Source: Azonexaceae bacterium
Lineage (GTDB): Bacteria > Pseudomonadota > Gammaproteobacteria > Burkholderiales > Rhodocyclaceae
DNA length: 64,000 bases
Reading direction: 5' to 3'
Assembly: GCA_013335535.1 (NCBI GenBank)
Contig: JAAXVL010000008.1
Coordinates: 62,001-126,000 of the forward strand
Of the stretch, positions 1,383 to 63,791 are shown in pieces; position 1 is the first letter of the stretch, and every line of letters begins with the position of its first letter. A program made the translations under genes and the position numbers. Under the pieces are notes generated by a model, which worked only from the letters and a program-made list of their open reading frames with translations, was not told the origin of the DNA and did not search any database.

Positions 1383-1419
1383 TTTGATTTTTGGCCGTTT
1401 TTCCAGTTGACCGTGGCAA
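1383..1419 (+). repeat. Dispersed 39-bp element, copy 1 (intergenic)
   Basis: T-rich part TTTTTGGCCGTTTTTCC followed by AGTTGACCGTGGCAA, one mismatch in the core (A for the second G of CCGG). It lies between the methyltransferase gene and the terminator of the convergent PEP-CTERM gene. Confidence 0.85.
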
Positions 1420-1450
1420 CAGCTGCAGAGCGCACGACTCGCCTGCCCAA

Positions 1451-1485
1451 AACGAAAATGCCATTCAGCCTGCGCTGAATGGCAT
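1451..1485 (-). terminator. Rho-independent terminator of the PEP-CTERM gene
   Basis: An 11-bp perfect stem (ATGCCATTCAG / CTGAATGGCAT, loop of 6) is followed on the minus strand by TTTTCGTTTT. It lies 37 bp past the stop codon of the minus-strand PEP-CTERM gene. Confidence 0.8.
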
Positions 1486-1521
1486 CCGGGCCGAAGCCCT
1501 TTCATTGCGGATTTGGTCCAA

Positions 1522-2124
1522 TCAGGCGCGACGACGGCGAACCACAGCGGCCAGAATACCCAGACCGGCAAGCAGCATCGAGGCGCTACCCGGTTCCGGG
1601 ACGGCCGTTACCGTTATGTTGTCGAGCGAACCGCCGAAGCTGTCCGAGGTGCCAATGGCCGCAAATTTCAGGACGCCAAAACCGTTTGCATCAGCCTTCA
1701 AGTCATAGAAATGCTCACCCCAGTCGGAGCTATTGATTCCACTGAGCTTGATGGAGCCAACTGATTGGTTGTTCCAGTAAACTCGGATGCCATTGCTGTC
1801 TTCCGAAACACCGGCACGTGGCGCATAGAAGAAGGACAGTTCCAGCGACTGGAAGGGGTTGGTGTGGATAGTCTGGGAAATCCAGCTATTTCCGTAGGCA
1901 TCCAGTTCGGCGAAACGAACTCCTTCAGCGGCTGTGCCAGCGATCGCGTTCCGGATTTCAACGCCATTGGCACCCGTCGTCCAGCCATAACCGGCGCCAT
2001 AAAAGACATCCCAATGACCCGGAGTTACCGAGGTGTAATCCTCGAAGCTGCCATTGACGACGAGGTTGGCCTGAGCCAGGGCAGGAGCGCTCAGTAGTGC
2101 AGCGATAGCAAGCAGTTTTTTCAT
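1522..2124 (-). CDS. PEP-CTERM sorting domain protein
   Basis: The 200-residue product has a signal peptide (MKKLLAIAALLSAPALAQA) and ends in a PEP-CTERM module: VPEPGSASMLLAGLG, a hydrophobic stretch and the basic tail RRRRA. PEP-CTERM proteins are exported and processed by exosortase, usually in exopolysaccharide-producing Gram-negatives. The middle part (NLVVNGSFEDY near the N-terminus, then a beta-rich region ending SFGGSLDNITVTA) resembles the DUF642/carbohydrate-binding jelly-roll type found in many such proteins. I chose the ATG at 2124 because it starts the signal peptide and has AAGGA about 8 nt upstream. No exosortase gene is in the window. Confidence 0.9.
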   Translation of the reverse strand: MKKLLAIAALLSAPALAQANLVVNGSFEDYTSVTPGHWDVFYGAGYGWTTGANGVEIRNAIAGTAAEGVRFAELDAYGNSWISQTIHTNPFQSLELSFFYAPRAGVSEDSNGIRVYWNNQSVGSIKLSGINSSDWGEHFYDLKADANGFGVLKFAAIGTSDSFGGSLDNITVTAVPEPGSASMLLAGLGILAAVVRRRRA

Positions 2125-2280: not shown

Positions 2281-2319
2281 TTTTCATTTTGGGCCGTTTT
2301 TTCCGGTTGACCGTGGCAA
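2281..2319 (+). repeat. Dispersed element, copy 2 (intergenic)
   Basis: Near-consensus copy: CATTTTGGGCCGTTTTTT followed by CCGGTTGACCGTGGCAA. It starts about 157 bp upstream of the PEP-CTERM start codon and ends 8 bp before the stop codon of glutamate dehydrogenase. Confidence 0.9.
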
Positions 2320-2327
2320 TCAGCCGA

Positions 2328-4862: not shown

Positions 4863-4878
4863 AACCCCGGCGGCGTCA

Positions 4879-6286: not shown

Positions 6287-7093
6287 TCAGATCGGCTTGA
6301 GCCACTTTCGCTCCCCGGCCGGCACGGCAAACGGCAGCCAGTTTTCGGGCGGCGGCAGCGGGCAGGTAGCGAAGGGGGTGAAGGCGCAGGGCGGGTTGTA
6401 GGCACAATTGAAATTCAGGCGAATTTTCCGGTTGACCGTGGAAGTCGCCGTTTCATCGGGAATCGGCGACGCCGTCTTCAAAAAACGACCGGCGCCGTAG
6501 GTTTCCTTGCCGCTCGTCCGGTCGCGGAAGACAAAGAAGACCTCCTTGTCGCTGACCGCCATCGGCAACAACGTCACCTTCTGCCCAGCCACTTCAAACA
6601 CGGCCTGATGGCTGACTTCGACACGCTTGAGATCGCCGCTGACATTCGGCACTTCCATGCTGATCGGCGGAGACAGCACCTGCCACTCGGCCTCGATCTG
6701 CCAGGCCGGATCGAAGCCAAAATAGTCCAGCCCGCCGAATGGTTGGCTCTGCGCCCAGTCGCGATCGCGCAAACGGGCTGCAATCCGGTTCTCACGGTCA
6801 ACCAGAAAAAAAGACCAATTTTCAAAGTCGACCACGCTCGGCTGGCCGGCGATATCGGTCTGCAACTCGCGCGCTTCGCCATCGACCGGCTGCCAGATCA
6901 CCTGTCCGTCCTGCCACAGCAAATCGCCGAGATGCGCCGGTCCGTCGGGCAAGAGAACAACCGAATCCTCGGCGCAACCGACGCTGTTGCGCCCCGGCTC
7001 GAGCCAGAACAGCCCGCGTATGCCCAGCCAGCTTTCCGGCCCGGCCAGTTCGGCGTGGCGGCGAGTTTTCCAGTCTTTCAGGTCATCCCACAT
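6287..7093 (-). CDS. DUF1684 family protein
   Basis: The 268-residue product carries the hallmark C-terminal motif of DUF1684, AYNPPCAFTPFATCPLPPPE followed by NWLPFAVPAGE, and YGAGRFL upstream. The biochemical role of the family is unknown. Two copies of the dispersed element lie inside the gene: one encodes STVNRKIRLNFN directly before the conserved AYNPPC motif (about residues 217-229), and a more degenerate one encodes FENWSFFLVDRE (about 90-101). Both are in frame and leave the family motifs intact. Confidence 0.85.
   Translation of the reverse strand: MWDDLKDWKTRRHAELAGPESWLGIRGLFWLEPGRNSVGCAEDSVVLLPDGPAHLGDLLWQDGQVIWQPVDGEARELQTDIAGQPSVVDFENWSFFLVDRENRIAARLRDRDWAQSQPFGGLDYFGFDPAWQIEAEWQVLSPPISMEVPNVSGDLKRVEVSHQAVFEVAGQKVTLLPMAVSDKEVFFVFRDRTSGKETYGAGRFLKTASPIPDETATSTVNRKIRLNFNCAYNPPCAFTPFATCPLPPPENWLPFAVPAGERKWLKPI
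6408..6443 (+). repeat. Dispersed element, copy 3 (inside DUF1684 gene)
   Basis: Perfect core CCGGTTGACCGTGG preceded by TTGAAATTCAGGCGAATTTT. It is read in frame from the opposite strand as STVNRKIRLNFN, just ahead of the family motif. Confidence 0.85.
6791..6825 (-). repeat. Dispersed element, degenerate copy 4 (inside DUF1684 gene)
   Basis: CACGGTCAACCAGAAAAAAAGACCAATTTTCAA in two parts: the core has one mismatch (AG for GG) and the A/T tracts keep the usual spacing. It sits in the same gene as copy 3 but in the opposite orientation. Confidence 0.6.
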
Positions 7094-10179: not shown

Positions 10180-10205
10180 ATGAGGGGCGTTCCGGCAATT
10201 TCAAG
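10180..10205 (-). promoter_or_regulatory. Sigma-32 (heat-shock) promoter of clpB
   Basis: On the minus strand CTTGAAA is followed after 11 bases by CCCCTCAT, about 35 bp before the clpB start codon. This matches the RpoH consensus (CTTGAAA, 11-16 bp, CCCCAT-type -10) very closely. That clpB is an RpoH target is established in other proteobacteria. Confidence 0.85.
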
Positions 10206-10311
10206 CCATGCGCCGGTTGGTTTTCTTTGTCGACACACTTATAAATCCATTTCGCATATTCGAATTGTGATAGATTTAACACATCAGCCAAAAATACATG
10301 GAGGGGTCGAC

Positions 10312-11946
10312 ATGACCAACACGGGAATGACTCTGCGCAGCAAACTTCTCGCCATGACCGCCATAACAGTTGTTGCGCTCGCCGCACTCTTTACGGCGCT
10401 GCTCATCAACGGCAAGAGCCAGATGCTTGAAGACCGCCAGGACAAGGTACGCAACCTGGTCGAAGCGGCATACGGCATCCTGACCTTCTACGAGCAATCG
10501 AGCCGTGACGGAAAGATGTCCACCGACGACGCCAAGAAATACGCGGCCGCCGCCATCCGTACCCTGCGCTACGACAAGGTCGAGTATTTCTGGATCAACG
10601 ACCTGCAAGACACGATGGTCATGCATCCGATCAAGCCCGAACTGGAGGGCAAGAAGCTCGACCAGATCAAGGACAAGAACGGCAAGCTGCTGTTCGTCGA
10701 ATTCAACAACATGGTGAAGTCCAAAGGCGCGGGCTTCGTCGATTACCTCTGGCCGAAACCAGGCTCGGAGGAAGGCGTGCCGAAGATTTCATTCGTCATG
10801 GGCTTCGCGCCCTGGGGCTGGGTCATCGGCTCGGGCATCTATGTAGACGATGTCGATGCCAAGTTCCGCAGCGATGCCATCAAGCTTCTACTCTGGGGGC
10901 TGGGCATCGCGGGCTTCATCACCATCTCGCTGCTGGTGCTCTCCAACAATATCGTCAAGACCCTGGGCGGCGACCCGGCAATCGCTTCGGCCGTCACCAA
11001 GCGCATTGCCGCAGGCGACCTGACCACACCCGTCGACTGTCAGCCGGGAGATCAGGACAGCCTGCTCGGCAACATCCGCAGCATGCAGGAAACCCTGCGC
11101 TTCATGATCGCCAGCATCGTCGCCAATGCCGAGCAGGTGGCCAGTGCCGCCACCCAACTGCTCAGCGCATCCGAGCAGGTCGCCGTGCGGGCCAGCCAGC
11201 AGAGCGATGCTGCCTCGTCGATGGCCGCTTCGGTCGAGGAAATGGCGGTCAGCATCGACCAGGTCAAGGAAAACGCCAGCGAAGCGCACAACATTTCGCA
11301 AACGGCCGGCGAGATTTCCGAAGAGGGAGCCTCCGTCATTCACAACGCCGCTACGGAAATGCGCAAGATTTCCGACGCAGTCCAGTCGTCGTCGGAGATC
11401 ATCGCAGACCTCGGGCACCAGTCCGACCAGATCACCTCCATCGTCAATACCATCAAGGAAATCGCCGACCAGACCAATCTGCTGGCGCTCAATGCCGCCA
11501 TCGAGGCGGCGCGTGCCGGCGAACAGGGGCGCGGCTTTGCCGTGGTTGCCGACGAAGTGCGCAAACTGGCCGAACGCACCGGGAATTCGACCAAGGAAAT
11601 CGGCGAGATGGTCGCCAAGATCCAGAACGGTACGCGCAGTGCGGTCAGCAGCATGCAGGATGGCGTCCGTCAGGTTGCTAACGGCGTCGAACTGGCCAAT
11701 CAGGCCGGCGATTCGATCAACCGCATTCGCGATGGCGCAATACGCGTAACGGTCGTGGTCAATGGCATTTCCGACTCGATTTCGGAACAAAGCATGGCCA
11801 GCAACGAAATCGCCCAGAAGCTCGAAGTCATCGCCCAGATGTCAGAGGAAAGTGCCGCTGCCGTCCGCCAGACAGCCGATGCAGCCCGCCAGTTGCAGTC
11901 GCTCTCAAGCTCGCTTCGGCAGATGGTGGTTCAGTTCAAGACCTGA
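10312..11946 (+). CDS. Methyl-accepting chemotaxis protein with single Cache sensor domain
   Basis: The 544-residue membrane receptor has an N-terminal transmembrane helix (about 10-35), a periplasmic sCache_2-type domain (about 40-190, with [20 protein letters not shown] and [14 protein letters not shown]), a second transmembrane helix (about 195-215), HAMP, and a methyl-accepting domain with [20 protein letters not shown]. The Cache type commonly binds small organic acids or similar ligands, but the ligand here is unknown. The ATG at 10312 follows GAGGGG with about 5 nt spacing; the longer open frame upstream overlaps the clpB promoter and is unlikely. Confidence 0.93.
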
Positions 11947-12070
11947 GCGGTTGCAGTTCCAGGGGAAGCATTCAAGACCGACCCCATTCGACCGCCCGCC
12001 ACGCCCCAGCCAAACCGGGGCGCTTGGCGGCCAGCGGACGAATGGAAAGCGGTCGTGCGCAAGACCAATA

Positions 12071-12108
12071 TTTCGATTTTGGCCCGTTTTTCCGATTGAC
12101 CGTGGAAA
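12071..12108 (+). repeat. Dispersed element, copy 5 (intergenic)
   Basis: CGATTTTGGCCCGTTTTT followed by CCGATTGACCGTGGAAA, one core mismatch. It lies between two convergent genes (chemoreceptor and moaE), 12 bp beyond the moaE stop. Confidence 0.9.
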
Positions 12109-12120: not shown

Positions 12121-12576
12121 TTATTGAGACTGCCAGCGCGCTGCTGCGCTGTCGTCCGTCTCGCGCGCATCGACCCAGCGCCCGCCATCCGGCGTCGCTT
12201 CGCGCTTCCAGAAAGGGGCGCGAGTCTTCAGGTAATCCATGATGAATTCGCAGGCGGCGAAGGCTTCGCCGCGATGGGCGCTGGTCACGGCGACGAGCAC
12301 GATCTGGTCGCAGGGTTTGAGCGGGCCGACGCGGTGGATGACCAGCGCGTCGTAAATTTCCCAGCGGCCCTTGGCTTCGGCGACGATGGCCTCGAGCGCC
12401 TTTTCGGTCATTCCCGGGTAATGCTCCAGCGTCATTTCGGCAACGCTGGCCCCGTCGTTCATGTCGCGCACCAAGCCGAGAAAGCTGGCCAAGGCGCCAA
12501 CCCGGGCGTCAGCCGCCCGCAGCGCCAGCAACTCGGCGCCAAGGTCGAAATCGGCTTCCTGCACCCGGACGGTCAT
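12121..12576 (-). CDS. moaE: Molybdopterin synthase catalytic subunit MoaE
   Basis: The 151-residue product makes molybdopterin by transferring sulfur from MoaD to precursor Z. The family motifs are visible: LEHYPGMTE, HRVGPLKPCDQIVLVAVTSA, and the catalytic region FIMDYLKTRAPFWKREA followed by GGRWVDA. Its start lies 2 bp after the prfC stop codon, which suggests translational coupling; moaD is not in the window. Confidence 0.95.
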   Translation of the reverse strand: MTVRVQEADFDLGAELLALRAADARVGALASFLGLVRDMNDGASVAEMTLEHYPGMTEKALEAIVAEAKGRWEIYDALVIHRVGPLKPCDQIVLVAVTSAHRGEAFAACEFIMDYLKTRAPFWKREATPDGGRWVDARETDDSAAARWQSQ

Positions 12577-12578
12577 GC

Positions 12579-14216: not shown

Positions 14217-14948
14217 TCAGGAAACGGGGAGCACCTGCCGGTACAGCGCCCGGCTGGCGTAGGCCATCCACGGCAGGGTCAGCGGCAGGAGCGGCAAGAG
14301 CAGAACGCTGCCGATTGTCACGGTCGACAGGAAAAAAGCCCAAAAAATGGCCGGCAGAAAATTGCCGAAAACGACGCGCACGCTGAGCACCACGGCCTCG
14401 ACCAGCCCGGCCCGGCGCTCGCAGAGCAAGGGCACGGAAAAAGCAGCAACGCAGTAGAGCAGGAAGGCGACGACCAGACCGGAAACCCCGGCCCAGCGGA
14501 CGAAAGACAGCACGCTGGCGTTGGCCGGCAGCAGCTTGTCGAGCCACACCGGCGTCGCGCCGACCATGTAAGCGTAGAGAATCGCCGCATCGGTAACAAA
14601 GATCATGAAGAGTAGTGCGCAGACCAGCGACAACGCCCAGAGCGCCCGCGAAGCCCGGGAAAAACCGCTGGCGATGCTGGACACGCCCACCGGCGCACCG
14701 GCTTCAAGCGCCCCGGCGATGCCGAAAAATCCGGCCAGCGCGACCGGCCCGACCAGCATGAAAGCCCCGGCCGCAGCGATGATGAAAGGCGTCCAGCCCT
14801 GGGCCAGCAGGCCACCCATGATCGCCAGACCACCCAGCGTAAAAATCAGCGCGTAGCCGATACTGATGCCGCGCGTCGCGTTGGCCACGCGCCAGCCGTC
14901 AGCCAGCGCACGTTGCACGCCGCCAATAGTCAGAGGGGAAAGATTCAT
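14217..14948 (-). CDS. Integral membrane protein, DUF2189 family
   Basis: The 243-residue hydrophobic protein has about six transmembrane segments (near residues 28-50, 55-75, 105-130, 150-180, 195-215, 215-235). The N-terminal ALADGWRVANATRGISIGYAL region is typical of DUF2189, a family of unknown function often found near respiratory genes. A degenerate copy of the dispersed element underlies residues about 199-211 (FWAFFLSTVTIG), inside a membrane segment. It ends 63 bp before the start of prfC. Confidence 0.75.
   Translation of the reverse strand: MNLSPLTIGGVQRALADGWRVANATRGISIGYALIFTLGGLAIMGGLLAQGWTPFIIAAAGAFMLVGPVALAGFFGIAGALEAGAPVGVSSIASGFSRASRALWALSLVCALLFMIFVTDAAILYAYMVGATPVWLDKLLPANASVLSFVRWAGVSGLVVAFLLYCVAAFSVPLLCERRAGLVEAVVLSVRVVFGNFLPAIFWAFFLSTVTIGSVLLLPLLPLTLPWMAYASRALYRQVLPVS
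14315..14350 (-). repeat. Dispersed element, degenerate copy (inside DUF2189 gene)
   Basis: TTGTCACGGTCGACAGG followed by AAAAAAGCCCAAAAAATGG. The core has three mismatches but the two A-rich tracts and their spacing are kept. It might be chance similarity improved by coding constraints. Confidence 0.5.
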
Positions 14949-18722: not shown

Positions 18723-19079
18723 TCAACCCAACTCGGTGTATTTGGCCCGCGAGCCGTAGGCTTTTTCCACGGGATATTTCTCGGCATTTTTAGCCAGTTT
18801 GTCGCGTGCGGCGGCAGCGAGGTCGATGCCGGCCTTGTCGGCGATGAGTAGCAGGTAGAGCAGAATGTCGGCGCATTCGTCACGCAGGGCTTCGGCCGCC
18901 TGCGCATCGGTCGGCAGCGCCTCGACTTCGGCGTCACTTTTCCATTGCGTCAGTTCGAGCAGCTCGGCCGCTTCGAGGTTGAGCGAGGTGATCAGGTTGC
19001 GCAGCGTGTGAAATTGCTGCCAGTTGCGTTCATCGCGAAACGCCAGCAATGCCACGGTCAACGCCGAAAAATCGCTCAT
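18723..19079 (-). CDS. MazG-like nucleotide pyrophosphohydrolase (dCTP pyrophosphatase type)
   Basis: The 118-residue all-alpha protein has the metal-binding motifs LNLEAAELLEL and ECADILLYLLLIADKAG of the MazG/iMazG superfamily, with the conserved DKLAKNAEKYPVEKAYG end typical of the RS21-C6/DCTPP1 group that hydrolyses dCTP and modified nucleotides (house-cleaning). It is divergent from the PAS-GGDEF gene. Confidence 0.88.
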   Translation of the reverse strand: MSDFSALTVALLAFRDERNWQQFHTLRNLITSLNLEAAELLELTQWKSDAEVEALPTDAQAAEALRDECADILLYLLLIADKAGIDLAAAARDKLAKNAEKYPVEKAYGSRAKYTELG

Positions 19080-19240
19080 TTTGAAATCCTCTCGATAGAG
19101 CCCGGATCATGCCAGCCCGGCAAGGAAACGGGAACCTTCGGCGGCACGGCGCTATCCAACTTTCTGAATTTTCTCGCGCTGTCCAGCGCGTGAAGCCGGA
19201 ATCCCCCCGGCAGGGCGGAGGTATTGCATGGTCGCGGCTG

Positions 19241-20485: not shown

Positions 20486-20535
20486 TTCGCCGACGCCGGA
20501 CAGGTAAAATTGGCGAATCTCGCGGTCCACCTGGC

Positions 20536-20574
20536 TTGCCACGGTCAACCGGAAAAAATGCCCAAAATTGAAAT
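20536..20574 (-). repeat. Dispersed element, copy 6 (intergenic, near-consensus)
   Basis: TTGCCACGGTCAACCGG, AAAAAATGCCC and AAAATTGAAAT in order, with a perfect core. It ends 16 bp before the carbonic-anhydrase-like start codon, next to the ribosome-binding site. Confidence 0.92.
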
Positions 20575-20590
20575 ATTGCAAGGAGCCCTC

Positions 20591-21112
20591 ATGCCCCTCT
20601 TCAGCCTCGGCGAAAAACAGCCCCAGGTCGGTGACAACGCCTGGATTGCGCCCAACGCCACGGTTATCGGCGATGTCCGCCTCGGCGCCAACAGCTCGAT
20701 CTGGTGGAACGCCACGCTGCGCGGCGACAACGATCCGATCCACATCGGCGACAACACGAATATTCAGGACGGCTCGGTGCTCCATACCGACGAAGGCGTG
20801 CCGATGCACATCGGCAATAACGTCACCGTCGGCCATCTCGTCATGCTGCATGGCTGCACGGTCGGCGACGGCAGCCTGATCGGCATTGGCTCGGTCATCC
20901 TCAACCGGGCGGTGATCGGCAAGGGCTGCATCGTCGGCGCCAATACGCTGATCCCCGAAGGCAAGGTCTTCCCCGACCGCGTGCTCATCGTCGGCTCGCC
21001 GGGCAAGGTGGTGCGCGAACTGAGCGATCAGGATGTCGCCAACCTGCAGAAATCGGCCGAACACTACGTCGCCAACGCGAATCGTTATCGCGACACGCTC
21101 AAGCCGCTGTAA
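20591..21112 (+). CDS. Gamma-class carbonic anhydrase family protein (left-handed beta helix)
   Basis: The 173-residue protein is a hexapeptide-repeat trimer of the gamma-carbonic anhydrase/YrdA group. Three metal-ligand histidines are visible in [20 protein letters not shown], and acidic and Arg/Asp residues in [11 protein letters not shown]. The ATG at 20591 ([12 protein letters not shown]) follows AAGGAG with 6 nt spacing; the longer open frame runs back through the dispersed element and is not expected to be translated. Whether it has carbonic anhydrase activity is unknown for this subgroup. Confidence 0.92.
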
Positions 21113-25393: not shown

Positions 25394-25440
25394 TTCCTCC
25401 GGTCACCGTGGGTGATCGCCACGGCAATAACGGCGAATCT

Positions 25441-25475
25441 CACGGTCAACCGGAAAAAATGGCCAAAATTGAAAT
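25441..25475 (-). repeat. Dispersed element, copy 7 (intergenic, near-consensus)
   Basis: CACGGTCAACCGGAAAAAAT followed by GGCCAAAATTGAAAT. It is the cleanest copy across the A/T tracts; it lies 47 bp after the tex stop and 133 bp before the next start codon. Confidence 0.92.
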
Positions 25476-25607: not shown

Positions 25608-26945
25608 ATGAAACGCCACCTGCTTTACCTCGCCCTCATCCCCCTCGGTCTCTGGGGCATCTTCGCCCTGCCCGACGTGCTCGCCACCAACCCGGAAGGC
25701 CCCTGGGCCTGGCGCAAGCCGCTGATCATCCTCTCCGGACTGCTCGCCCTGTGGTGGGTCAGCGCCGGAATGCTGCTCGCCGCCCGCCCGCGCTGGCTGG
25801 AGGCGCGTTCTGGTGGGCTCGACAAGCTCTACCGCCTGCACAAGAACATCGGCATCGGCGCCGGCATCCTGGTCCTTACCCACTACCTGCTCGAATGGCT
25901 GCCCAAGACCCTCTCCAAAGCCGGCCTGATCACCGGCCCGAATCGCCCGCGCGGACCGCACGGCGAACCCGAGATGTGGATCGACCTAGCCAAAGATGTC
26001 GGAGAATGGGCCGGCTACATCCTGCTCGGACTGGTCGTCATCGCCCTCGTCAAACGCATTCCCTACCGCTATTTCCGCTGGGTGCACAAGGCGTTTGGCG
26101 CCGTTTTCCTGGCTGGCGCTTTCCACGGCCTGATCCTCATGCCAAGCACCTTCTGGCAAAGCCCGCTCGGCTGGCTGACCGCCGCGCTTGCCGCTGCCGG
26201 CGTCGTCCCCGCCGTGCTCTCGCTGTCGAATCGTATCGGCCGCAACCGCCAACATCACGCCCAGATCGTTTCAATCGGCCAGCACAACGGCAAGTTGCTT
26301 GAAATCGTCTGCCGCCCGGAAAAGAACTGGCCCGGCCACAAGGCCGGACAATTCCTCTTCGCCAACTTCGGCTCGCGCGGCGAAGGTGCCCACCCGTTCA
26401 CCATCGCCTCGGCCTGGAACGCGCAGGAAGGCACGCTGACCCTGGCCATCAAGGCACTCGGCGATTTCACGGCCCAGCTCCCGGCCTTGATCGAGGCTGG
26501 CCAGACGATCACCCTCGAAGGCCCCTACGGCGCATTTGATTTTTCGCCCAAAACTCCGGTTGACCGTGGCAACACAGCGCACCAAGTCTGGGTCGCCGGC
26601 GGCATCGGCATCACGCCCTTCCTCGCCCGCCTTGAGCAACTTGCGGCCGCCACTACGCCGACGAACTCCACGGCCGATCTTTTCTACTGCACGCCAAACG
26701 CCGCAGCGGGCGATTTCCCCGAACATCTCGAAGCCCTGTGCCAAGCCGCCGGCGTGCGCCTGCACCGACGCCAGACCGACAACACCGGCCCGCTCTCGGC
26801 GCAGGAAGTCGCCGCCACACTCCAGCCCGACAGCACCGTCTGGTTCTGCGGCCCAGCCGCCTGGGGCAAGGCGCTGGACGAAGCACTGCACCGCAGCGGC
26901 CTGTCCCGCATCGCCTTTCACCAGGAGGCCTTCGAGTTCCGCTAA
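25608..26945 (+). CDS. Ferric-reductase-like transmembrane flavoprotein
   Basis: The 445-residue protein has about six N-terminal transmembrane helices with paired His residues (LHKNIGIGAGILVLTHYLLEW and RWVHKAFGAVFLAGAFHGL) expected to hold two hemes, then an FAD domain (GAHPFTIAS) and an NAD domain (VWVAGGIGITPFLARL, FCGPAAWG). The layout is that of the predicted ferric reductase/NADPH oxidase superfamily. Between GPYGAFDF and HQVWVAGGIGI, where relatives have a short linker, a copy of the dispersed element encodes SPKTPVDRGNTA (about residues 309-322). Confidence 0.85.
   Translation: MKRHLLYLALIPLGLWGIFALPDVLATNPEGPWAWRKPLIILSGLLALWWVSAGMLLAARPRWLEARSGGLDKLYRLHKNIGIGAGILVLTHYLLEWLPKTLSKAGLITGPNRPRGPHGEPEMWIDLAKDVGEWAGYILLGLVVIALVKRIPYRYFRWVHKAFGAVFLAGAFHGLILMPSTFWQSPLGWLTAALAAAGVVPAVLSLSNRIGRNRQHHAQIVSIGQHNGKLLEIVCRPEKNWPGHKAGQFLFANFGSRGEGAHPFTIASAWNAQEGTLTLAIKALGDFTAQLPALIEAGQTITLEGPYGAFDFSPKTPVDRGNTAHQVWVAGGIGITPFLARLEQLAAATTPTNSTADLFYCTPNAAAGDFPEHLEALCQAAGVRLHRRQTDNTGPLSAQEVAATLQPDSTVWFCGPAAWGKALDEALHRSGLSRIAFHQEAFEFR
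26534..26572 (+). repeat. Dispersed element, copy 8 (inside the ferric-reductase-like gene)
   Basis: Perfect core CCGGTTGACCGTGGCAA preceded by TTTTTCGCCCAAAACT. It is translated in frame as SPKTPVDRGN at a surface-loop position between the FAD and NAD domains. Confidence 0.9.
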
Positions 26946-29608: not shown

Positions 29609-31006
29609 TCAGAGCACCTTGCCGGGATTCATCAGGCCGCGCGGATCGAGCGCCTGCTTGAGCGTGCGCATCAGCGCCATCTCGACCGGGCTCTTGTAAC
29701 GCAGGATTTCCTCGCGCTTCAGCTGGCCGATGCCATGCTCGGCCGAAATCGAGCCATTCAGCGCATGCACCGCGTCATGAACGATGCGATGAACCTCGGG
29801 CTCACTGGCCAGGAAGGTGGCGTTGTCGTGCGCGTCGGCCTTGGACAGGTTGTAATGCAGGTTGCCGTCACCAACGTGACCAAAGGCAACGATCCGAATC
29901 CCCGGAAAGGCCGCGGCCAGCGCCGCATCGGCCGTGGCCAGAAACTCCGGAATGCAGGAAACCGGCACCGAAACATCGTGCTTGATGCTGATGCCCTCGA
30001 TCTTCTGCGCTTCGGAAATATGCTCGCGCAGCGCCCACAGCTTTTGCGCCTGCGGGCCGGACTGGGCGATAACGCCATCGACCACCTCGCCGGACTCCAG
30101 CCGGCTGTGCAGCCAGTGCGCCACAGCCGCCGGCTTGCTATCGGAAAATTCGGCCAGCACGTACCACGGGCTGCCTGCCGTCGGCCGCGTCGACTCTGGG
30201 ATGTGTGTAAGGACCAAGCCGAGCGAGGTGTTCGAAATCAGCTCGAAAGCCGTCAGCTGGGCGTCGAAGGCCGCTTTAGCCGCATTGAGCAGATCAACCG
30301 CAGCGGCTGGCGAATCGACATTCAGCCAGCAGGTGGTCCGCGTTTTCGGCAGAGGGAATAGCTTGAGCACGGCGCCGGTGATGATGCCCAGCGTGCCTTC
30401 GGCACCGATGAATAGCTGCTTGAGATCGTAACCGGTGTTGTCCTTGCGCAAACCGCGCCGGCCATCCCAGATGTCGCCGTTGGGCAGAACCACTTCCAGG
30501 CCGAGCGTCAGCTCACGCGTGTTGCCGTAGCGCAAAACCTGCACGCCGCCAGCATTGGTGGAGAGATTGCCGCCGATCTGGCACGTCCCTTCCGATGCCA
30601 GAGCCAACGGAAACAGCCGGTCGACAGCACTTGCGGCCTCCTGAACGGCAGCCAGCGTGCAGCCGGCTTCTACGGAAATCGTGCTGTTTTTCCGGTCGAC
30701 CGTGCAAATGCGGTTCAGACGGCTCAGGCTGATGATTACCGCGCCGCCCGACGCATCGGGCGTCGCCGCGCCGCACAGGCTCGTGTTGCCGCCCTGCGGG
30801 ACAATGGCCACGCCGGCTTCGACGCAGATCTTGACGACCGCAGCCACCTCGGCAGTGCTGCCCGGCCGGACAACGCATTGCGCCGCGCCGCGATAACGGC
30901 CGCGCCAGTCGGTGACGAAGGGCGCGATGTCGGCCGGGTCGGTCAGCACCTGCACTGTGCCGACAACCTCGACCAGACGATCAGGCAGGCTGGGCGTAGA
31001 GGTCAT
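29609..31006 (-). CDS. FAD-linked oxidase (glycolate oxidase GlcD / D-lactate dehydrogenase type)
   Basis: The 465-residue flavoprotein has an N-terminal PCMH/FAD_binding_4 domain ([63 protein letters not shown]) and a C-terminal FAD-oxidase domain ([27 protein letters not shown]). It oxidises a 2-hydroxy acid; substrate uncertain. [11 protein letters not shown] at 31006 is the natural start, overlapping the last 26 bp of rimO. Residues 99-110 ([12 protein letters not shown]) are encoded by a copy of the dispersed element. Confidence 0.85.
30676..30707 (+). repeat. Dispersed element, copy 9 (inside the FAD-linked oxidase gene)
   Basis: TTTTTCCGGTCGACCGTGCAA: the core has two mismatches (C for T, C for G). 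The upstream A/T tract is less clear. It encodes a stretch that fits the family consensus, so it may be an adapted or eroded copy. Confidence 0.55.
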
Positions 31007-33985: not shown

Positions 33986-33989
33986 GGTT

Positions 33990-34064
<75 letters not shown>

Positions 34065-34457: not shown

Positions 34458-34496
34458 ATTTCAAATTTGGGCAATTTTTCCGGTTGACCGTGGAAA
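34458..34496 (+). repeat. Dispersed element, copy 10 (intergenic)
   Basis: ATTTCAAATTTGGGCAATTT followed by TTCCGGTTGACCGTGGAAA; perfect core. It lies about 230 bp upstream of the TonB receptor gene. Confidence 0.9.
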
Positions 34497-38557: not shown

Positions 38558-39445
38558 CTATTGGACGGCCAGGCGTTCGGCCAGCGTATCCATGAGCACT
38601 CGAACGCGGTGCGGTACGTGGCGATTGCTGGGCAGGATGGCGTAAATGCCAAGTTCGGGAATCGGAAAATCAGTCAGAATTTCCGCTACCCGGCCGCTGG
38701 CCAGGAAAGTATCGGCAATGAAATCGGGCTGGCAACTGATGCCCAGCCCCTGCGCCGTCGCCTCCGTCAGGACGTCGCCGTTGTTGGCGTTGAGGCGGCT
38801 GCGGACATGGAAGCTCTCAAGTTGCCCATCAACCATGAATTGCCAGAGCTGGCTGCTGCCGGCGTTGGTGTAGCCGAGGCAGACGTGGTTTGCCAAATCG
38901 GCCGGTTTTTCCGGTTGACCGTGGCGAGCGAGGTATTCCGGGGCGGCGACGACGAGCATGCGGCTAGAACCGATCTTGCGAGCCACGTCGCCGGATTCGA
39001 GCCGCCGGGTGATGCGGATCGACAGGTCGATGCCTTCCTCGATGAGGTTCACGCGCCGGTCACTGTAATCCATGTCGAGCGAGACGTCCGGGTAGCGTTG
39101 CGAGAAATCAAGCAGGATGGGCGCCAGCCGTTTCATGCCGTAACTGAGCGGCAGGCTGATGCGGATATTACCGCGCGGCGTCAGGCGCTCTTCGGCAACG
39201 CCCGTTTCAGCCGCCTCGACGAGATTGAGGATGACCCGGCACTTTTCCAGATAGGCTGTGCCGCCCGAGGTCAGCGCCAGCCGGCGCGTGCTGCGCGCCA
39301 TGAGCTTGACGCCGAGGTGCGCTTCCAGAGCGGCGATCTGCCGCGTCACGACCGAGCGGGCGACGCCCAACTGCTGGGCGACGGCGGCAAAGCTGCCGAG
39401 TTCGGCCACCCGCACGAAGAGATGCATCGCATCGAGCCTGTCCAT
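38558..39445 (-). CDS. LysR-family transcriptional regulator
   Basis: The 295-residue protein has the LysR helix-turn-helix (MDRLDAMHLFVRVAELGSF, GVARSVVTRQIAALEAHLGV) and a periplasmic-binding-like sensor domain. It is divergent from the dioxygenase-cytochrome operon, which it probably controls; the 95-bp gap contains TTGCAATTCCAGCAATAG, where T-N11-A-type dyads could serve as operator. Residues about 173-185 (ARHGQPEKPADLA) are encoded by a copy of the dispersed element but still fit the family consensus. Confidence 0.92.
   Translation of the reverse strand: MDRLDAMHLFVRVAELGSFAAVAQQLGVARSVVTRQIAALEAHLGVKLMARSTRRLALTSGGTAYLEKCRVILNLVEAAETGVAEERLTPRGNIRISLPLSYGMKRLAPILLDFSQRYPDVSLDMDYSDRRVNLIEEGIDLSIRITRRLESGDVARKIGSSRMLVVAAPEYLARHGQPEKPADLANHVCLGYTNAGSSQLWQFMVDGQLESFHVRSRLNANNGDVLTEATAQGLGISCQPDFIADTFLASGRVAEILTDFPIPELGIYAILPSNRHVPHRVRVLMDTLAERLAVQ
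38889..38927 (+). repeat. Dispersed element, copy 11 (inside the LysR gene)
   Basis: TTGCCAAATCGGCCGGTTTT followed by TCCGGTTGACCGTGGCGA; perfect core. On the coding strand it reads as HGQPEKPADLA, at a position where LysR proteins normally have RHGxPxxPxDL. Confidence 0.9.
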
Positions 39446-39540
39446 TGTTGCAATTCCAGCAATAGTAATTTGCACATTGTCGGCTATTTCGTTCCGAATA
39501 AGGCGCATAAAGTGCGTCCATCGACAGAGGAGTTGCAGCA

Positions 39541-40344
39541 ATGACACAGATTCAACCCGCCCTTTTTGTACCGCACGGTGCGCCGACCTTCGCGCTGCGC
39601 CCGGGTGCGGCCGGCGCCGCGCTGAGTGCCCTGGCCGGATCGCTGCCACTGCCGCGCGCCATCGTCATCGTCAGCGCCCACTGGGATACGGCCGTGCCGA
39701 CCGTCGGTTTCGCCGAACGGCCGGAAACGATCTACGACTTCTGGGGCTTCCCGGAGGAACTCTACGCCATCCGCTATCCGGCCACCGGCTGCCCGGAAGC
39801 TTCCGAGGAAGTCGTCGCCGCCATCAAGGCTGCCGGCCTGCCGGTCGCCACCGATAGCGGGCGCGGCCTAGATCATGGCGCCTGGATTCCGCTGCGCCTG
39901 ATGTTCCCCGATGCCGAAGTGCCGGTCATTCCGCTCTCCATCCAGAGCCGCGGCGGGCCGCAAAAGGCTTACGAACTGGGCCGGGCACTGGCGCCGCTGA
40001 CGGAAAAAGGCTTTCTCGTCATCGCCTCGGGCAATCTCACGCACAACCTGCGCGACTATCAGATGGCAGCCCGCAGCGGCGGGCAGACGCCAGGATATGT
40101 GCGCCAGTTCACCAACTGGCTGGCCGACAATCTCCATGCCCGTAACATCGATGTCTTGCTCGATTACCGCCAGCAAGCACCGGGCGGCGCGCAAGCTCAC
40201 CCGAGCGATGAACATTTGCTACCGCTGTATGTCGCACTCGGTGCCGGCGGTGAAAACGCCGAGGCCAGCCGCTTCCATGCCGGTATCGACGACTACGTCA
40301 TCGCCATGGATGCTTATTCATTCTTACCCAAAAAAGGAGGTTGA
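39541..40344 (+). CDS. Extradiol ring-opening dioxygenase family protein (DODA/YgiD type)
   Basis: The 267-residue protein has the class III extradiol (LigB-like) pattern with metal ligands: PALFVPHGAP, VIVSAHWDTAVP, GLDHGAWIPLRLMFPDAEVPV in two parts, and SGNLTHNLRD. E. coli YgiD and plant DODA open catechol-type rings (4,5-DOPA). The in-vivo substrate is unknown. Its stop codon lies inside a copy of the dispersed element, which also provides the start of the next gene. Confidence 0.9.
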   Translation: MTQIQPALFVPHGAPTFALRPGAAGAALSALAGSLPLPRAIVIVSAHWDTAVPTVGFAERPETIYDFWGFPEELYAIRYPATGCPEASEEVVAAIKAAGLPVATDSGRGLDHGAWIPLRLMFPDAEVPVIPLSIQSRGGPQKAYELGRALAPLTEKGFLVIASGNLTHNLRDYQMAARSGGQTPGYVRQFTNWLADNLHARNIDVLLDYRQQAPGGAQAHPSDEHLLPLYVALGAGGENAEASRFHAGIDDYVIAMDAYSFLPKKGG

Positions 40345-40354
40345 CCGTGGCAAG
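40326..40354 (+). repeat. Dispersed element, copy 12 (gene junction)
   Basis: ACCCAAAAAAGGAGG followed by TTGACCGTGGCAAG. The usual CC of CCGG is replaced so that the tract contains a ribosome-binding site. It spans the stop codon of the dioxygenase and the start codon of the cytochrome gene. Confidence 0.75.
40334..40349 (+). promoter_or_regulatory. Ribosome-binding site and GTG start of the cytochrome b561 gene
   Basis: AAGGAGG (40334-40340) is 6 nt before the GTG at 40347. The GTG is part of the element core (GGTTGACCGTGG). This decides the start: the earlier in-frame TTG at 40341 touches the Shine-Dalgarno site and cannot be used. Confidence 0.85.
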
Positions 40355-49794: not shown

Positions 49795-51588
49795 TCAGAA
49801 TACTTCATCACCTATCGCTGCCAAGGCTGCATCACCGGCTCTGACGGTTTCACCGTAGGCCGTAGCCTGCGGCAACATCTGGTCAGCATAAAAGCGGGCC
49901 GTCGCGATCTTGGCACGGTAGAAAGCCTGGTCGCCCTCACCTTTGTCCAGATAACCAGCAGCAGCCAGTGCAGCCTTGCCCATGAACCAGCCACCGCAGA
50001 CGGTGACCGCCAGGTGCAGGTAGGGTACGGCGGCCGTCAACACACCGGAGAGGCCGGTCTTGGCGTTGGCGGCCAGCCATTCGCTTGCGTCCGTCCACGC
50101 CTTGAGCGCGACGCCGAGGCGCTGGCCGATGGCCTGCAATTCCGGCTTGCCGGAAGCTCCCAATGCCTTGGCGGTGGCGTAGACCTCGCCGAAGACGACC
50201 TTGGCCGTCGCGCCCTGGTCGCGCATGAGTTTGCGGAACAGGAGATCGTTGGCCTGGATGCCGGTCGTCCCTTCGTAGATCGTGGTGATGCGCGAATCGC
50301 GCCAGTGCTGGGCGGCGCCGGTTTCCTCGATGAAGCCCATGCCGCCGTAGATCTGGATGCCGAGCGAGGTGACGTCGATGCCCATTTCGGTGCCGCCGCC
50401 CTTGACGATGGGGATCATGAACTCGGCGAGAAATAGCGATTTTTGCCGATTTTCCGGGTTGACCGTGGCATGCGCCCGGTCGAGCAGGCCGGAGGCGTAA
50501 TAAGCCATGGCCCGGCACGCTTCGACGCGGCACTTCATGAGCATCAGCATGCGGCGGATGTCAGGGTGTTTGTCGAGCGTCACGAGGGCTTCGCCAGTCA
50601 CGGCATCGCGCCCCTGCTTGCGTTCGCGGGCATAGCCGAGTGCCTGCTGGTAGGCCCGCTCGCCGAGGGCAATACCTTGGAGGCCGACGCCGAGGCGGGC
50701 CTCGTTCATCATGATGAACATGTACTCGAGGCCGCGATTGGCTTGGCCGAGCAGGTAGCCGACGGCACCGCCATTGTCACCGTAGGCCATGACGCAGGTC
50801 GGGCTGGCGTGGATGCCGAGCTTGTGTTCGATGGAAACGCAGTAAGCGTCGTTGCGGGCGCCGAGCGAGCCGTCGGCGTTCACCAGGAACTTCGGGACGA
50901 GGAACATCGAGATGCCCTTCACCCCGGCCGGTGCATCGGGCAGTCGGGCAAGGACGAGGTGGACGATGTTGTCCGTCATGTCGTGGTCGCCGTAGGTGAT
51001 GAAAATCTTCTGGCCGAAGACGCGGTACGTGCCATCGGCCTGCGGCTCGGCGCGCGAGCGGATTAGCGCCAGATCGGAGCCGGCTTGCGGCTCGGTCAGA
51101 TTCATCGTGCCGGTCCATTCGCCGGTGATCATCTTTTCGAGGTAGATGGCTTTGAGTTCGTCGCTGGCACAGGTGATGAGTGCCTCGACCGCGCCCGTAG
51201 TGAGCAAGGGGCCGAGCGAAAACGACAGATTAGCCGAGCAGACCATTTCCTTGACGGCGACGCCCAGCGTATCGGGCAGGCCCTGGCCGCCGAAATCGGC
51301 CGGCGATGAAACGCCGTTCCAGCCGGCTTCGCAGAAGGCTTTGTAGGCTTCCTTCCAGCCAGGTGGGGTGGTGACGCCATTGGGGGTCAGCTTGCAACCT
51401 TCCTTGTCGCCAACGCGATTGAGGGGGGCGAGGACTTCACCGGTGAATTTGGCGGCCTCGTCCAGAATCGCATCGGCGAGGTCTGGCGTGGCATCGGCAT
51501 ATTCCGGAAACTGCGCCAGCTCCTTGAAGCCGGCCAGTTCGTCCATGACGAAACGCATGTCTTTTACGGGCGCACGGTAGTCGCTCAT
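49795..51588 (-). CDS. Acyl-CoA dehydrogenase with C-terminal extension
   Basis: The 597-residue FAD enzyme catalyses the first step of beta-oxidation. It has the acyl-CoA dehydrogenase domains (GWNGVSSPADFGGQG, TMNLTEPQAGSDLALIRSRA, GVKGISMFLVPKF) and the catalytic Glu in RITTIYEGTTGIQANDLLFR, plus the C-terminal domain typical of the 590-600 residue subfamily. It is the last gene of the fadN operon. Residues about 372-385 (ATVNPENRQKSLFL) are encoded by a copy of the dispersed element. Confidence 0.92.
   Translation of the reverse strand: MSDYRAPVKDMRFVMDELAGFKELAQFPEYADATPDLADAILDEAAKFTGEVLAPLNRVGDKEGCKLTPNGVTTPPGWKEAYKAFCEAGWNGVSSPADFGGQGLPDTLGVAVKEMVCSANLSFSLGPLLTTGAVEALITCASDELKAIYLEKMITGEWTGTMNLTEPQAGSDLALIRSRAEPQADGTYRVFGQKIFITYGDHDMTDNIVHLVLARLPDAPAGVKGISMFLVPKFLVNADGSLGARNDAYCVSIEHKLGIHASPTCVMAYGDNGGAVGYLLGQANRGLEYMFIMMNEARLGVGLQGIALGERAYQQALGYARERKQGRDAVTGEALVTLDKHPDIRRMLMLMKCRVEACRAMAYYASGLLDRAHATVNPENRQKSLFLAEFMIPIVKGGGTEMGIDVTSLGIQIYGGMGFIEETGAAQHWRDSRITTIYEGTTGIQANDLLFRKLMRDQGATAKVVFGEVYATAKALGASGKPELQAIGQRLGVALKAWTDASEWLAANAKTGLSGVLTAAVPYLHLAVTVCGGWFMGKAALAAAGYLDKGEGDQAFYRAKIATARFYADQMLPQATAYGETVRAGDAALAAIGDEVF
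50432..50471 (+). repeat. Dispersed element, copy 13 (inside acyl-CoA dehydrogenase gene)
   Basis: AGCGATTTTTGCCGATTTT followed by CCGGGTTGACCGTGGCAT: one extra G in the core. It is read in frame as ATVNPENRQKSL in the helical C-terminal half. Confidence 0.85.
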
Positions 51589-55328: not shown

Positions 55329-55330
55329 GA

Positions 55331-55369
55331 TTTCAATTTTGGCCGATTTTTCCGGATGACCGTGGGAAT
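55331..55369 (+). repeat. Dispersed element, copy 14 (intergenic, at a start codon)
   Basis: ATTTCAATTTTGGCCGATTT followed by TTCCGGATGACCGTGGGAAT; one core mismatch (A for T). It fills most of the 53 bp between the thiolase stop and the thioesterase start. Confidence 0.92.
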
Positions 55370-59061: not shown

Positions 59062-59077
59062 ATTATAGAGCGACAAC

Positions 59078-59116
59078 TTCCACGGTCAACCGGTTTTTTG
59101 GCCCAAATTCGAAAAA
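59078..59116 (-). repeat. Dispersed element, copy 15 (intergenic)
   Basis: CTTCCACGGTCAACCGG, TTTTTTGGCCC and AAATTCGAAA in order. The first A tract is inverted to T here, but the core is perfect and the spacing is kept. Confidence 0.85.
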
Positions 59117-60529: not shown

Positions 60530-60541
60530 AAATAAACAACA

Positions 60542-62446: not shown

Positions 62447-62463
62447 GCGCCGATCCCCCGCGT

Positions 62464-62502
62464 CTCCACGGTCAACCGGAAAAAACGCCCAAAATTAAAA
62501 TC
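62464..62502 (-). repeat. Dispersed element, copy 16 (intergenic)
   Basis: CTCCACGGTCAACCGG, AAAAAACGCCC and AAAATTAAAAT in order; perfect core. It fills most of the 61 bp between the thiolase stop and the fadJ start. Confidence 0.92.
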
Positions 62503-62507
62503 GGTGT

Positions 62508-63791
62508 TCATAGCGCCTCCACCAGCATCGCCCCGCCCAGACCACCACCGATGCAAATCGTGGCGATCCCGCGTTTCGCGTTGTTCCGGCGCAAGACGTT
62601 GAGCAGATGCAGCACGATGCGCGCCCCAGAAGCGCCGACCGGGTGGCCGATGGCGATGGCGCCGCCATCCACGTTGAGTTTCTCGTCGTCAATGGAGCCG
62701 AGGGCTCCGGGCAGATCGAGCTGCTCGCGGCAGTACTCCTCCGATTTCCACGCGGCCTGACAGCCGAGCACCTGCGCGGCGAAGGCTTCGTTTAGCTCCC
62801 AGTAATCGACGTCGTTGAGTCCCAGGCCATGGCGCTGCAGGATCGGCGTCGTGGCATGCACCGGGCCGAGGCCCATCTGCGCCGGGTCGAGGCCGGCCCA
62901 TTCGCTGTCGACGATCTTGCCGATGGGCTTGAGGCCCCATTTCTGCACGGCTTCTTCCGAAGCCAGAATCACCCAGGCAGCGCCGTCAGTGATCTGCGAG
63001 CTGTTGGCGGCCGTGATGTTGCCGTATTTCTTGTCGAAGAAAGGCTTGAGCTTGGCCATGCCGGCCATGCTGGCATCGGCCCGCACGCCGTCGTCTTCGG
63101 CGTAAACCTTGCCCTGCCCATCAACCACCGGAACGATCTCGCCGTAATAGCCGGCGGCCCGCGCCGACATCGCTTTCAAATGACTTTTGACGGCGAACTC
63201 GTCCATCTGCTGGCGGTTGATGCCGAATTTCCAGGCCAGGTTTTCAGCCGTCTGGCCCATGAGCAGGCCGACGACGGGATCGGTCAGGCCTTTCATGAGG
63301 CCGATGACCGGCTTGAGCAATTCCGCTGCGGGCAATTTCAAAAAATGGCCGATTTTCTGGTTGACCGTGCGCAGGCTCATCATGCCGGCGAACCAGCGCA
63401 CCATCGCATCGGAATAGAGCAACGGCGCCCGTGACAGCGCATCGACGCCGCCGGCCAGCACCAGTTCAGAACGCCCGCACTGGATGTTGGCGATGGCCGA
63501 ATCGATGGCCTGCATGCCGGAAGCGCAGTTGCGCATGACCGTCCACCCCGGCACCTTCTTGCCGCAGCCGAGGCGCAGGGCGACCATGCGGCCGATGTTG
63601 GTTTCATCCGGCGAGGGCGCGGCGCAGCCGAGGATGACCTCGTCGAGATCGCTCGGCGCGAAGGGCTGGCGCAGCAGCAAAGCCCGCCCGGCCTGAGTGG
63701 CGAGGTCGGAGGCAGCGAAGACGCCCGGCCCTTTCTGGGCTTTCAAAAATGGCGAGCGGGCGCCGTCCACCACGTAAATCGTCTTGCTCAT
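62508..63791 (-). CDS. fadI: Acetyl-CoA C-acetyltransferase (thiolase, FadI-like)
   Basis: The 427-residue thiolase has the catalytic Cys in VMRNCASGMQAIDSAIAN, His in IAIGHPVGASGARIVLHLL and Cys in ATICIGGGLGGAMLVEAL. It is longer than the FadA-type paralog at 55.4 kb and belongs with fadE and fadJ. Residues about 140-153 (SLRTVNQKIGHFLKLP) are encoded by a copy of the dispersed element. The start at 63791 lies 2 bp after the fadE stop. Confidence 0.92.
   Translation of the reverse strand: MSKTIYVVDGARSPFLKAQKGPGVFAASDLATQAGRALLLRQPFAPSDLDEVILGCAAPSPDETNIGRMVALRLGCGKKVPGWTVMRNCASGMQAIDSAIANIQCGRSELVLAGGVDALSRAPLLYSDAMVRWFAGMMSLRTVNQKIGHFLKLPAAELLKPVIGLMKGLTDPVVGLLMGQTAENLAWKFGINRQQMDEFAVKSHLKAMSARAAGYYGEIVPVVDGQGKVYAEDDGVRADASMAGMAKLKPFFDKKYGNITAANSSQITDGAAWVILASEEAVQKWGLKPIGKIVDSEWAGLDPAQMGLGPVHATTPILQRHGLGLNDVDYWELNEAFAAQVLGCQAAWKSEEYCREQLDLPGALGSIDDEKLNVDGGAIAIGHPVGASGARIVLHLLNVLRRNNAKRGIATICIGGGLGGAMLVEAL
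63333..63370 (+). repeat. Dispersed element, copy 17 (inside fadI)
   Basis: CAATTTCAAAAAATGGCCG followed by ATTTTCTGGTTGACCGTGC; two mismatches at the core edges. It is read in frame as RTVNQKIGHFLK in a loop region of the thiolase. Confidence 0.8.

What the first reader, a model, noticed from the sequence alone, without database searches (positions are those of the whole stretch)
1383..63370. A dispersed 36-39 bp element with an uptake-signal-like architecture, 18 copies in 64 kb
Eighteen copies share the core CCGGTTGACCGTGG, preceded by a T tract and, one helical turn further, AATTTTGG. Seen directly: nine copies are intergenic although genes fill most of the window; both orientations occur; the core holds only a 4-bp inverted repeat (CGGT-TG-ACCG), so it cannot form a REP- or RPE-style hairpin. 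Known: the Haemophilus uptake signal is a short rigid core followed by two A/T tracts at helical spacing, spread through core genes. Inference: this is a DNA-uptake signal for natural transformation. Alternatives are a nucleoid or segregation site, or a non-autonomous mobile repeat. I do not know of a description in betaproteobacteria.
Basis: partly seen in the sequence, partly recalled or inferred. Interest (0 to 1): 0.88.

Follow-up and report, generated by a model that had tools for sequence, protein, structure and literature searches.

The report
Candidate DNA-uptake tag, Azonexus-Dechloromonas bacteria
A short DNA tag is repeated hundreds of times in this bacterium and, in different 'dialects', in some of its closest relatives; it looks and evolves like the tags that two other families of bacteria use to recognise and take up DNA of their own kind, but uptake itself has not been tested here.

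Summary
The exact core CCGGTTGACCGTGG occurs 375 times (188/187 by strand) in the window's 4.25-Mb genome against about 0.1 expected. The full motif is about 39 bp: the core preceded by three A/T tracts, two of them about one helical turn apart.

It does not behave like an inserted repeat: where relatives align, copies mostly differ by substitutions, also inside a coding sequence. Spacing is random, without strand polarity. It is absent from a 34-kb acquired island where 8 copies are expected.

Among genomes searched it is enriched only in one genus of Rhodocyclaceae (Azonexus/Dechloromonas group). There it is patchy and has dialects (...GACCGTGG...GACCGCAGCA) that differ in place at orthologous sites. 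Neisserial DUS and Pasteurellaceae USS behave this way; the sequence is unrelated to both.

Best reading: a third, independently evolved uptake signal (about 0.7). No uptake was measured and no receptor found. ComP-type pilins occur with or without the element, and the window genome's own comEC is interrupted by an integrated element.

The parts
1381..1419 (+). element copy, 1-mismatch core at 1403; intergenic between O-methyltransferase and PEP-CTERM genes
2281..2319 (+). element copy, exact core at 2303; intergenic between PEP-CTERM and Glu/Leu dehydrogenase-family genes
6406..6444 (+). element copy, exact core at 6428; inside DUF1684 gene 6287-7093(-)
6789..6827 (-). element copy, 2-mismatch core at 6792; inside DUF1684 gene 6287-7093(-)
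12070..12108 (+). element copy, 1-mismatch core at 12092; intergenic between ORFs 10180-11946(+) and 12121-12576(-) by the ORF list
14315..14353 (-). element copy, 3-mismatch core at 14318; inside DUF2189 gene 14217-14948(-); identical in G447
19049..19087 (-). element copy, 3-mismatch core at 19052; across the start of MazG-like gene 18723-19079(-)
20536..20574 (-). element copy, exact core at 20539; start of hexapeptide-transferase ORF 20510-21112(+), true start codon uncertain
25437..25475 (-). element copy, 1-mismatch core at 25440; intergenic after Tex gene 23072-25393(+)
26534..26572 (+). element copy, exact core at 26556; inside ferric-reductase-like gene 25608-26945(+)
30670..30708 (+). 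element copy, 2-mismatch core at 30692; inside FAD-linked oxidase gene 29609-31333(-)
34458..34496 (+). element copy, exact core at 34480; probably intergenic downstream of two tRNA genes (crude gene caller put a short ORF here)
38889..38927 (+). element copy, exact core at 38911; inside LysR-type regulator gene 38558-39649(-); conserved in G447
40315..40353 (+). weak copy, 2-mismatch core at 40337, over the ribosome-binding site and start of a cytochrome b561 gene; its conservation may be for translation
50433..50471 (+). element copy, 1-mismatch core at 50455; inside acyl-CoA dehydrogenase gene 49795-51588(-); CA form in G439, absent from the other 12 aligned sequences
55330..55368 (+). element copy, 1-mismatch core at 55352; between DUF4442 and thiolase genes
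59077..59115 (-). element copy, exact core at 59080; intergenic; TG form in G447, G450, G409, CA form in G439, G427, G443
62463..62501 (-). element copy, exact core at 62466; intergenic between fatty-acid oxidation genes; CA form in G439
63335..63373 (+). element copy, 2-mismatch core at 63357; inside thiolase gene 62508-63812(-)

Best explanation
The element is a genomic DNA-uptake signal of an Azonexus/Dechloromonas-group bacterium. During natural transformation a surface protein on the type IV pilus or its tip (not identified here) would bind the core GTTGACCGTGG; the A/T tracts, stiff and bent, would help binding and the kinking of DNA into the secretin. Fragments with the tag are taken up preferentially and recombine into the chromosome, so by biased uptake the tag accumulates by point mutation wherever it is tolerated. 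When receptor specificity shifts, copies follow, giving dialects; when transformation is lost, they decay. Shown: the motif, its excess, its mostly substitution-driven origin, dialects, patchiness. Inferred: binding, uptake, drive.
For: 375 exact copies vs 0.11 expected. Logo with A/T tracts on one side of the core. Copies differ mostly by substitution: of 82 comparisons over 36 copies, 52 have no gap in the element, 12 have balanced gaps, 13 a net change of 1-7 bases, 5 more; a coding copy in acyl-CoA dehydrogenase is present in 2 of 14 aligned sequences. TG-to-CA difference in place at 6 of 11 G439 orthologues of G000 copies. Patchy counts of two dialects over 60 congeners; 146 other-genus genomes of the family have 0-5 matches, controls 0-4. 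The seven most TG-rich genomes in the tree form one clade, sister to element-poor G218. Random spacing, KS p 0.78, first 100 copies of C1; strand vs GC skew 53:62, p 0.46. 0 copies in the 33.7-kb island vs 8.4 expected, Poisson 2e-4. ComEC over cut-off in 53 of 60, ComEA in 9 of 10, DprA in 10 of 10, minor-pilin operon in the own genome.
Against: No uptake data. No receptor: PF16732 (ComP_DUS) pilins occur in 29 of 30 congeners tested, with or without the element, and differ among TG-dialect species. The window genome's own comEC is split by an integrated element, so this strain is probably not transformable now. Broken comEC is not significantly commoner in element-poor genomes: Fisher p 0.14 (59 genomes), 0.72 (the 44 at least 90% complete). 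G439 gave no ComEA hit over the cut-off. Dialects other than the two searched may exist in 'poor' genomes. Copy density, 0.25 per kb, is below that of USS and DUS as I recall it. A site-specific DNA-binding protein with another job could give several of the same patterns.
Confidence: 0.7

Rival explanations
1. A chromosome-organising or segregation site (of the kind of KOPS, MatS, Noc, SlmA or a nucleoid-protein site; recalled) bound by a dedicated DNA-binding protein.
For: Hundreds of A-tract-bearing sites across the genome; 46 of 115 intergenic against 9% non-coding (crude gene calls); dialects could follow any binding protein.
Against: No polarity with GC skew (53:62); spacing over the first 1 Mb of C1 compatible with random; copies in all ten G439 stretches sampled. 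33 of 60 congeners fall below both cut-offs used (>=40 TG at <=1 mismatch, >=20 exact CA), the sister G218 among them with 21 TG matches against 5 control, which is hard to reconcile with a core chromosome function unless they use dialects not searched.
Confidence: 0.15
2. A non-autonomous mobile repeat (MITE or REP-like) that spread by insertion.
For: Constant length with sharp edges; intergenic enrichment; two inverted pairs in 464 kb; at 55352 G218 lacks all 39 columns, and at L092:12114 G439 has 27 extra bases inside the element.
Against: 77 of 82 orthologue comparisons show no net length change above 7 bases, including relatives without the element. No terminal inverted repeats in the logo. 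Copies inside conserved genes in restricted frames. Two-base dialect changes in place.
Confidence: 0.05
3. A regulatory, terminator or recombination (Chi-like) sequence, or a restriction-modification target.
For: Intergenic enrichment; a pair at convergent gene ends (L095).
Against: 69 of 115 copies are called inside genes; no polarity; far longer than Chi or usual restriction sites (recalled); single copies have no hairpin.
Confidence: 0.1

Closest known systems
Pasteurellaceae uptake signal sequence (Hin-USS AAGTGCGGT, Apl-USS ACAAGCGGT)
   Same: Many copies genome-wide, a core with A/T tracts, two dialects, inverted pairs at terminators (passages of PMC7811141, PMC12616744, PMC5217627). That the tracts lie on one side of the core is recalled.
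   Different: Unrelated sequence: inner core GCGG absent from the consensus; Hin-USS 0 and Apl-USS 2 occurrences in 464 kb. Three tracts, a longer core, another class of bacteria; uptake not shown.
Neisseriaceae DNA uptake sequence (DUS)
   Same: Dialects between related species, strong genome-wide excess, some family members without it (passages of PMC3630211); host also a betaproteobacterium by older taxonomy (recalled).
   Different: No CTG core; DUS10 occurs 4 times in 464 kb; DUS is 10-12 bp without A/T tracts (recalled); link to ComP not shown here.
MITE / REP / RPE repeats
   Same: Short, dispersed, partly intergenic, both orientations.
   Different: Mostly no indel signature, no terminal repeats, no hairpin in single copies, many copies in coding sequence.

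Membership tests
Uptake signal sequences (the general kind) | Very strong genome-wide over-representation of one short motif, both strands | tested here: met
   375 exact vs 0.11 expected, 188/187 by strand
Uptake signal sequences (the general kind) | Copies arise by substitution and are tolerated in core genes | tested here: met
   77 of 82 comparisons with net length change of at most 7 bases; coding copies
Uptake signal sequences (the general kind) | Clade-specific dialects sharing an inner core | tested here: met
   TG and CA forms over 60 congeners, in-place differences at 6 of 11 sites
Uptake signal sequences (the general kind) | Competence and type IV pilus genes present | tested here: inconclusive
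   ComEC, ComEA, DprA and minor pilins found in most genomes searched, but own comEC split and G439 without ComEA over cut-off
Uptake signal sequences (the general kind) | Preferential uptake of DNA that carries the motif | not testable with these tools
   needs an uptake assay
Neisseriaceae DUS | constant CTG core in a DUS 10-12-mer | tested here: not met
   no CTG in the consensus of either strand; DUS10 4 times in 464 kb
Neisseriaceae DUS | ComP minor pilin as receptor | tested here: inconclusive
   PF16732 hit 44.2 bits, cut-off 27.3, but the family is in 29 of 30 congeners regardless of the element
Pasteurellaceae USS | inner core GCGG | tested here: not met
   absent from the consensus; Hin-USS 0, Apl-USS 2 in 464 kb
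Pasteurellaceae USS | A/T tracts at helical spacing beside the core | tested here: met
   two tracts about 10 bp apart plus a third 6-7 bp further
MITE / REP repeats | insertion as a unit, with terminal or hairpin repeats | tested here: not met
   five of 82 comparisons have larger indels
Replichore-polar sites (KOPS, Chi) | orientation follows replication | tested here: not met
   53:62 against GC skew, p 0.46

The most novel reading that the evidence does not exclude
A third, independently evolved DNA-uptake-signal system, in a genus of Rhodocyclaceae, resembling USS in its A/T tracts and turning over through at least two, probably three, dialects within one genus. In the same genus integrated elements have entered comEC at two separate codons, a possible counter-move by elements that transformation would erase.
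Probability: 0.6. Interest if true: 0.88.

Novelty: new variant of a known kind. Interest (0 to 1): 0.82.

Why it matters
[quoted passage not shown] A third instance in an unrelated, environmental group (habitat recalled) would show that the trait evolves repeatedly. Dialects that differ between species about 14% apart over the compared region (G000-G439), one of which carries both forms, would let receptor-motif co-evolution be studied in progress. The claim can be tested with a simple uptake competition.

Tried and rejected
Receptor by family: PF16732 pilins were sought in 30 genomes and found in 29, so they do not explain presence, absence or dialect (G433 had none). At E<=1e-15 the G000 pilin matches 27 of 60 congeners; the only close relative is in G447 (86% identity), while TG-rich G448, G450, G451, G409 and G400 have no match at that cut-off and G439 has 42%. 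The pilin loci show mixed alleles and no dialect pattern. The 19 PDB matches listed pilins, none named ComP.

comEC integrity against element abundance: not significant. 'Rich' was set as >=40 TG matches at <=1 mismatch or >=20 exact CA matches; G418 was dropped for lack of a comEC hit. The list of broken genes was made by hand, and some breaks may be assembly gaps.

De novo EM on 100-220 kb of G427 and G435 drifted to codon periodicity and was discarded. k-mer counts in 100 kb each of G218 and G443 gave no comparable motif; G435 gave a weak GGTCGACCG excess. GGTCGACC is a palindrome, so strand counts of GGTCGACCG are partly doubled; the 14-mers searched later are not palindromic. Extending the orthologue comparison to the rest of the window gave a spanning match for 2 of 14 copies in that script, both in G447. 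Rows named 'named_L...' come from loci fetched for an exact TG core, so they are biased towards TG and were left out of the dialect count. The phage and plasmid collections held no match over at least 80% of the 44-base query.
Full report
OBSERVATION. The window holds 27 matches to CCGGTTGACCGTGG at up to 3 mismatches; shuffles average 8.75 and none of 100 reaches 27. Eight are exact. Aligned with their flanks, most share an A/T-rich upstream block. In the 464 kb it copies above 12 bits and none in one order-3 Markov simulation of the same size; the matrix was trained on the same sequence. Extrapolated, the genome would hold about 1,000. Genome-wide the exact core occurs 188 times forward and 187 reverse, reversed-pattern control 0. 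The order-3 Markov expectation is 0.11; at <=1 mismatch 637 were observed and 4.4 expected.

ANATOMY. From 79 copies (<=1 mismatch) the conserved block runs from -22 to +16 of the core start; the consensus from 65 copies is aTTT.aATTTTggcc.tTTTTTCcgGTTGACCGTGGcAa. There are T-rich tracts at -22..-19, -16..-12 and -6..-1; the last two are about 10 bp apart, the first 6-7 bp from its neighbour. Two inverted pairs of the core with a 4-bp gap lie between genes in the sampled 464 kb, and three such close pairs are among the first 100 exact copies of C1. Hairpins are thus occasional and not the unit.

PLACEMENT. By a crude gene caller 46 of 115 copies are intergenic, where 9% of bases are non-coding (p 3e-19). 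ORFs and Pfam hits support eight or nine of 18 in the window. Of the 69 copies called in genes, 0 and 1 fall in one of the three frames on either strand. Spacing along C1 is compatible with random (KS p 0.78, first 100 positions), strands 44:56 there. There is no bias with GC skew: 53:62, p 0.46. TG or CA copies occur in all ten stretches sampled from the single-contig genome G439, which cover 0-2.8 Mb of 3.46 Mb.

TAXONOMIC RANGE. In the order, 27 of 399 genomes hold the exact core and none outside the genus has more than 2. In the family, 150 genomes searched with GGTYGACCGYRGCA gave G000 235, G111 122, G307 65 and G218 7, and 0-5 (controls 0-4) in the 146 of other genera. The order and family sets were drawn from larger groups.

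DIALECTS AND PATCHINESS. In 60 congeners at <=1 mismatch the TG core counts are G000 637, G447 485, G448 482, G451 462, G450 435, G409 308, G439 259, G400 167, then G408 85, G336 54, G402 44, and 1-33 in the other 49; controls 0-12. The CA form GGTYGACCGCAGCA has G411 142, G427 116, G429 112, G400 109, G446 108, G111 98, G439 97, G437 86, G433 81, G453 76, G336 70, G405 69, G418 68, G417 53, G407 39, G421 39, G420 38, G454 25, G412 23, G451 22, G447 21, 9-19 in five more, and 0-7 in 34 of 60; controls 0-2. G439 keeps the A/T tracts in the CA form; G427 keeps mainly the middle one. G307 shows mostly GGTCGACCGTGGCA among its listed places. Only these forms were counted, so a genome called poor may use another. 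A FastTree tree of 13 genomes from 11,161 columns, with copies masked, puts G000, G409, G439, G451, G450, G448 and G447 in one clade (support 1.000) with element-poor G218 as sister (0.997); G408, G336, CA-type G427, G435 and G443 lie outside. It rests on one 12.7-kb region, and G400 and G402 are not in it.

HOW COPIES ARISE. Copy 50455 lies in an acyl-CoA dehydrogenase gene. Fourteen sequences align there, with one 3-base gap due to a single row; G000 has the TG form, G439 the CA form, the other 12 neither, and G000 and G439 differ from the rest in residues there. BLAST places balanced gaps in this stretch for most of them. Over all 115 copies, 36 had an orthologous match spanning the element, giving 82 comparisons: 52 without any gap inside the element, 12 with balanced gaps, 13 with a net change of 1-7 bases, 5 larger. 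The five are 27 extra bases in G439 at L092:12114, three rows at 55352 (G218 lacks all 39 columns, G447's second locus and G435 lack 15) and a distant paralogue at 50455. At the intergenic copies 55352 and 62466 relatives differ in intergenic length, so an indel origin is possible there. For G439, leaving out loci fetched for an exact TG core, 11 G000 copies have a spanning orthologue: 6 show CA where G000 has TG, 1 shows CA in both, 3 show TG in both, 1 is interrupted. Two adjacent bases differing together at several fixed positions, while the rest is kept, is what a shifted recognition specificity predicts.

COMPETENCE GENES. ComEC (TIGR00361) is found in 59 of 60 congeners and over the cut-off in 53. 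DprA is over the cut-off in 10 of 10 and ComEA in 9 of 10, not in G439. The own genome has 14 type IV pilin-like matches, 12 over the cut-off, and a minor-pilin cluster with PilE-like, FimT/GspH and PilW proteins and a 1,312-codon ORF in the position of PilY1, beside an ispH-like gene (the last two names are recalled from sequence and position). The PilE-like protein scores 44.2 bits to PF16732 ComP_DUS (cut-off 27.3), but this family is in 29 of 30 congeners of all classes, so it says nothing about specificity.

comEC ISLAND. In the own genome comEC is cut after codon 295 of the called ORF by 33.7 kb of 51.5% GC DNA that begins with a large serine recombinase. G440 has a 70% identical recombinase at the same place; G402, G452 and G432 are cut near codon 278 instead. 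Other congeners have fragmentary comEC, some of it perhaps assembly breaks. The island holds 0 element copies where 8.4 are expected (Poisson 2e-4), while an exact copy sits in the comEC N-part before it. Mobile elements are known to disrupt competence genes (PMC11472951, passages; PMC12955456, start of abstract in a listing). This fits a lineage in which transformation matters, but the window's strain is then probably not transformable today, and broken comEC is not significantly linked to low copy number.

LITERATURE. PMC12616744 (passages) calls Neisseriaceae and Pasteurellaceae the only families known with specific motif recognition. PMC7811141 (passages) describes the USS core, A/T tracts and the idea of kinking at them. 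PMC3630211 (passages) describes eight DUS dialects, their constant CTG and family members without DUS. I found no report of such an element in this group: searches returned 0 papers; one search returned 2, of which passages show an unrelated use of the terms; (core 10-mer) listed 20 of 24 papers, unrelated by title and abstract start; two searches listed 20 of 58 and 20 of 26, mainly DUS/USS papers; PMC5217627 does not name Dechloromonas or Rhodocyclales. Only openly licensed PMC papers are held.

VERDICT. The uptake-signal interpretation is the best of those considered, at about 0.7, and unproven. It works like a USS and evolves like a DUS, but by sequence it belongs to neither.

Noticed in passing
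L195-L196 (G000:C33:109612-143330): A 33.7-kb, 51.5% GC integrated element with a large serine recombinase splits comEC of the window's own genome; a 70% identical recombinase sits at the same comEC codon in G440.
   Followed up: partly
L201-L206 (G402, G452, G432): comEC is interrupted at a second place, about 17 codons upstream of the first, in three other congeners, so comEC was entered at least twice independently in this genus.
   Followed up: partly
L197:4355-11447 and loci L235-L264: The minor-pilin locus is hypervariable between congeners (different PilE-type alleles, two gene arrangements) without a visible link to dialect.
   Followed up: partly
G439 (L157-L164, L127): A genome inside the TG clade carries both dialects (259 TG at <=1 mismatch, 97 exact CA), possibly a dialect switch in progress; it is also the one of ten without a ComEA hit over the cut-off.
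   Followed up: partly
G307: A likely third dialect, GGTCGACCGTGGCA, whose inner part GGTCGACC is a perfect palindrome.
   Followed up: no
L094:9191-9222 and L095:16807-16838: Back-to-back inverted pairs of the core (4-bp gap) between genes, one at convergent gene ends; terminator function not tested.
   Followed up: no
window 33910-34061: Two adjacent tRNA genes by Rfam.
   Followed up: no
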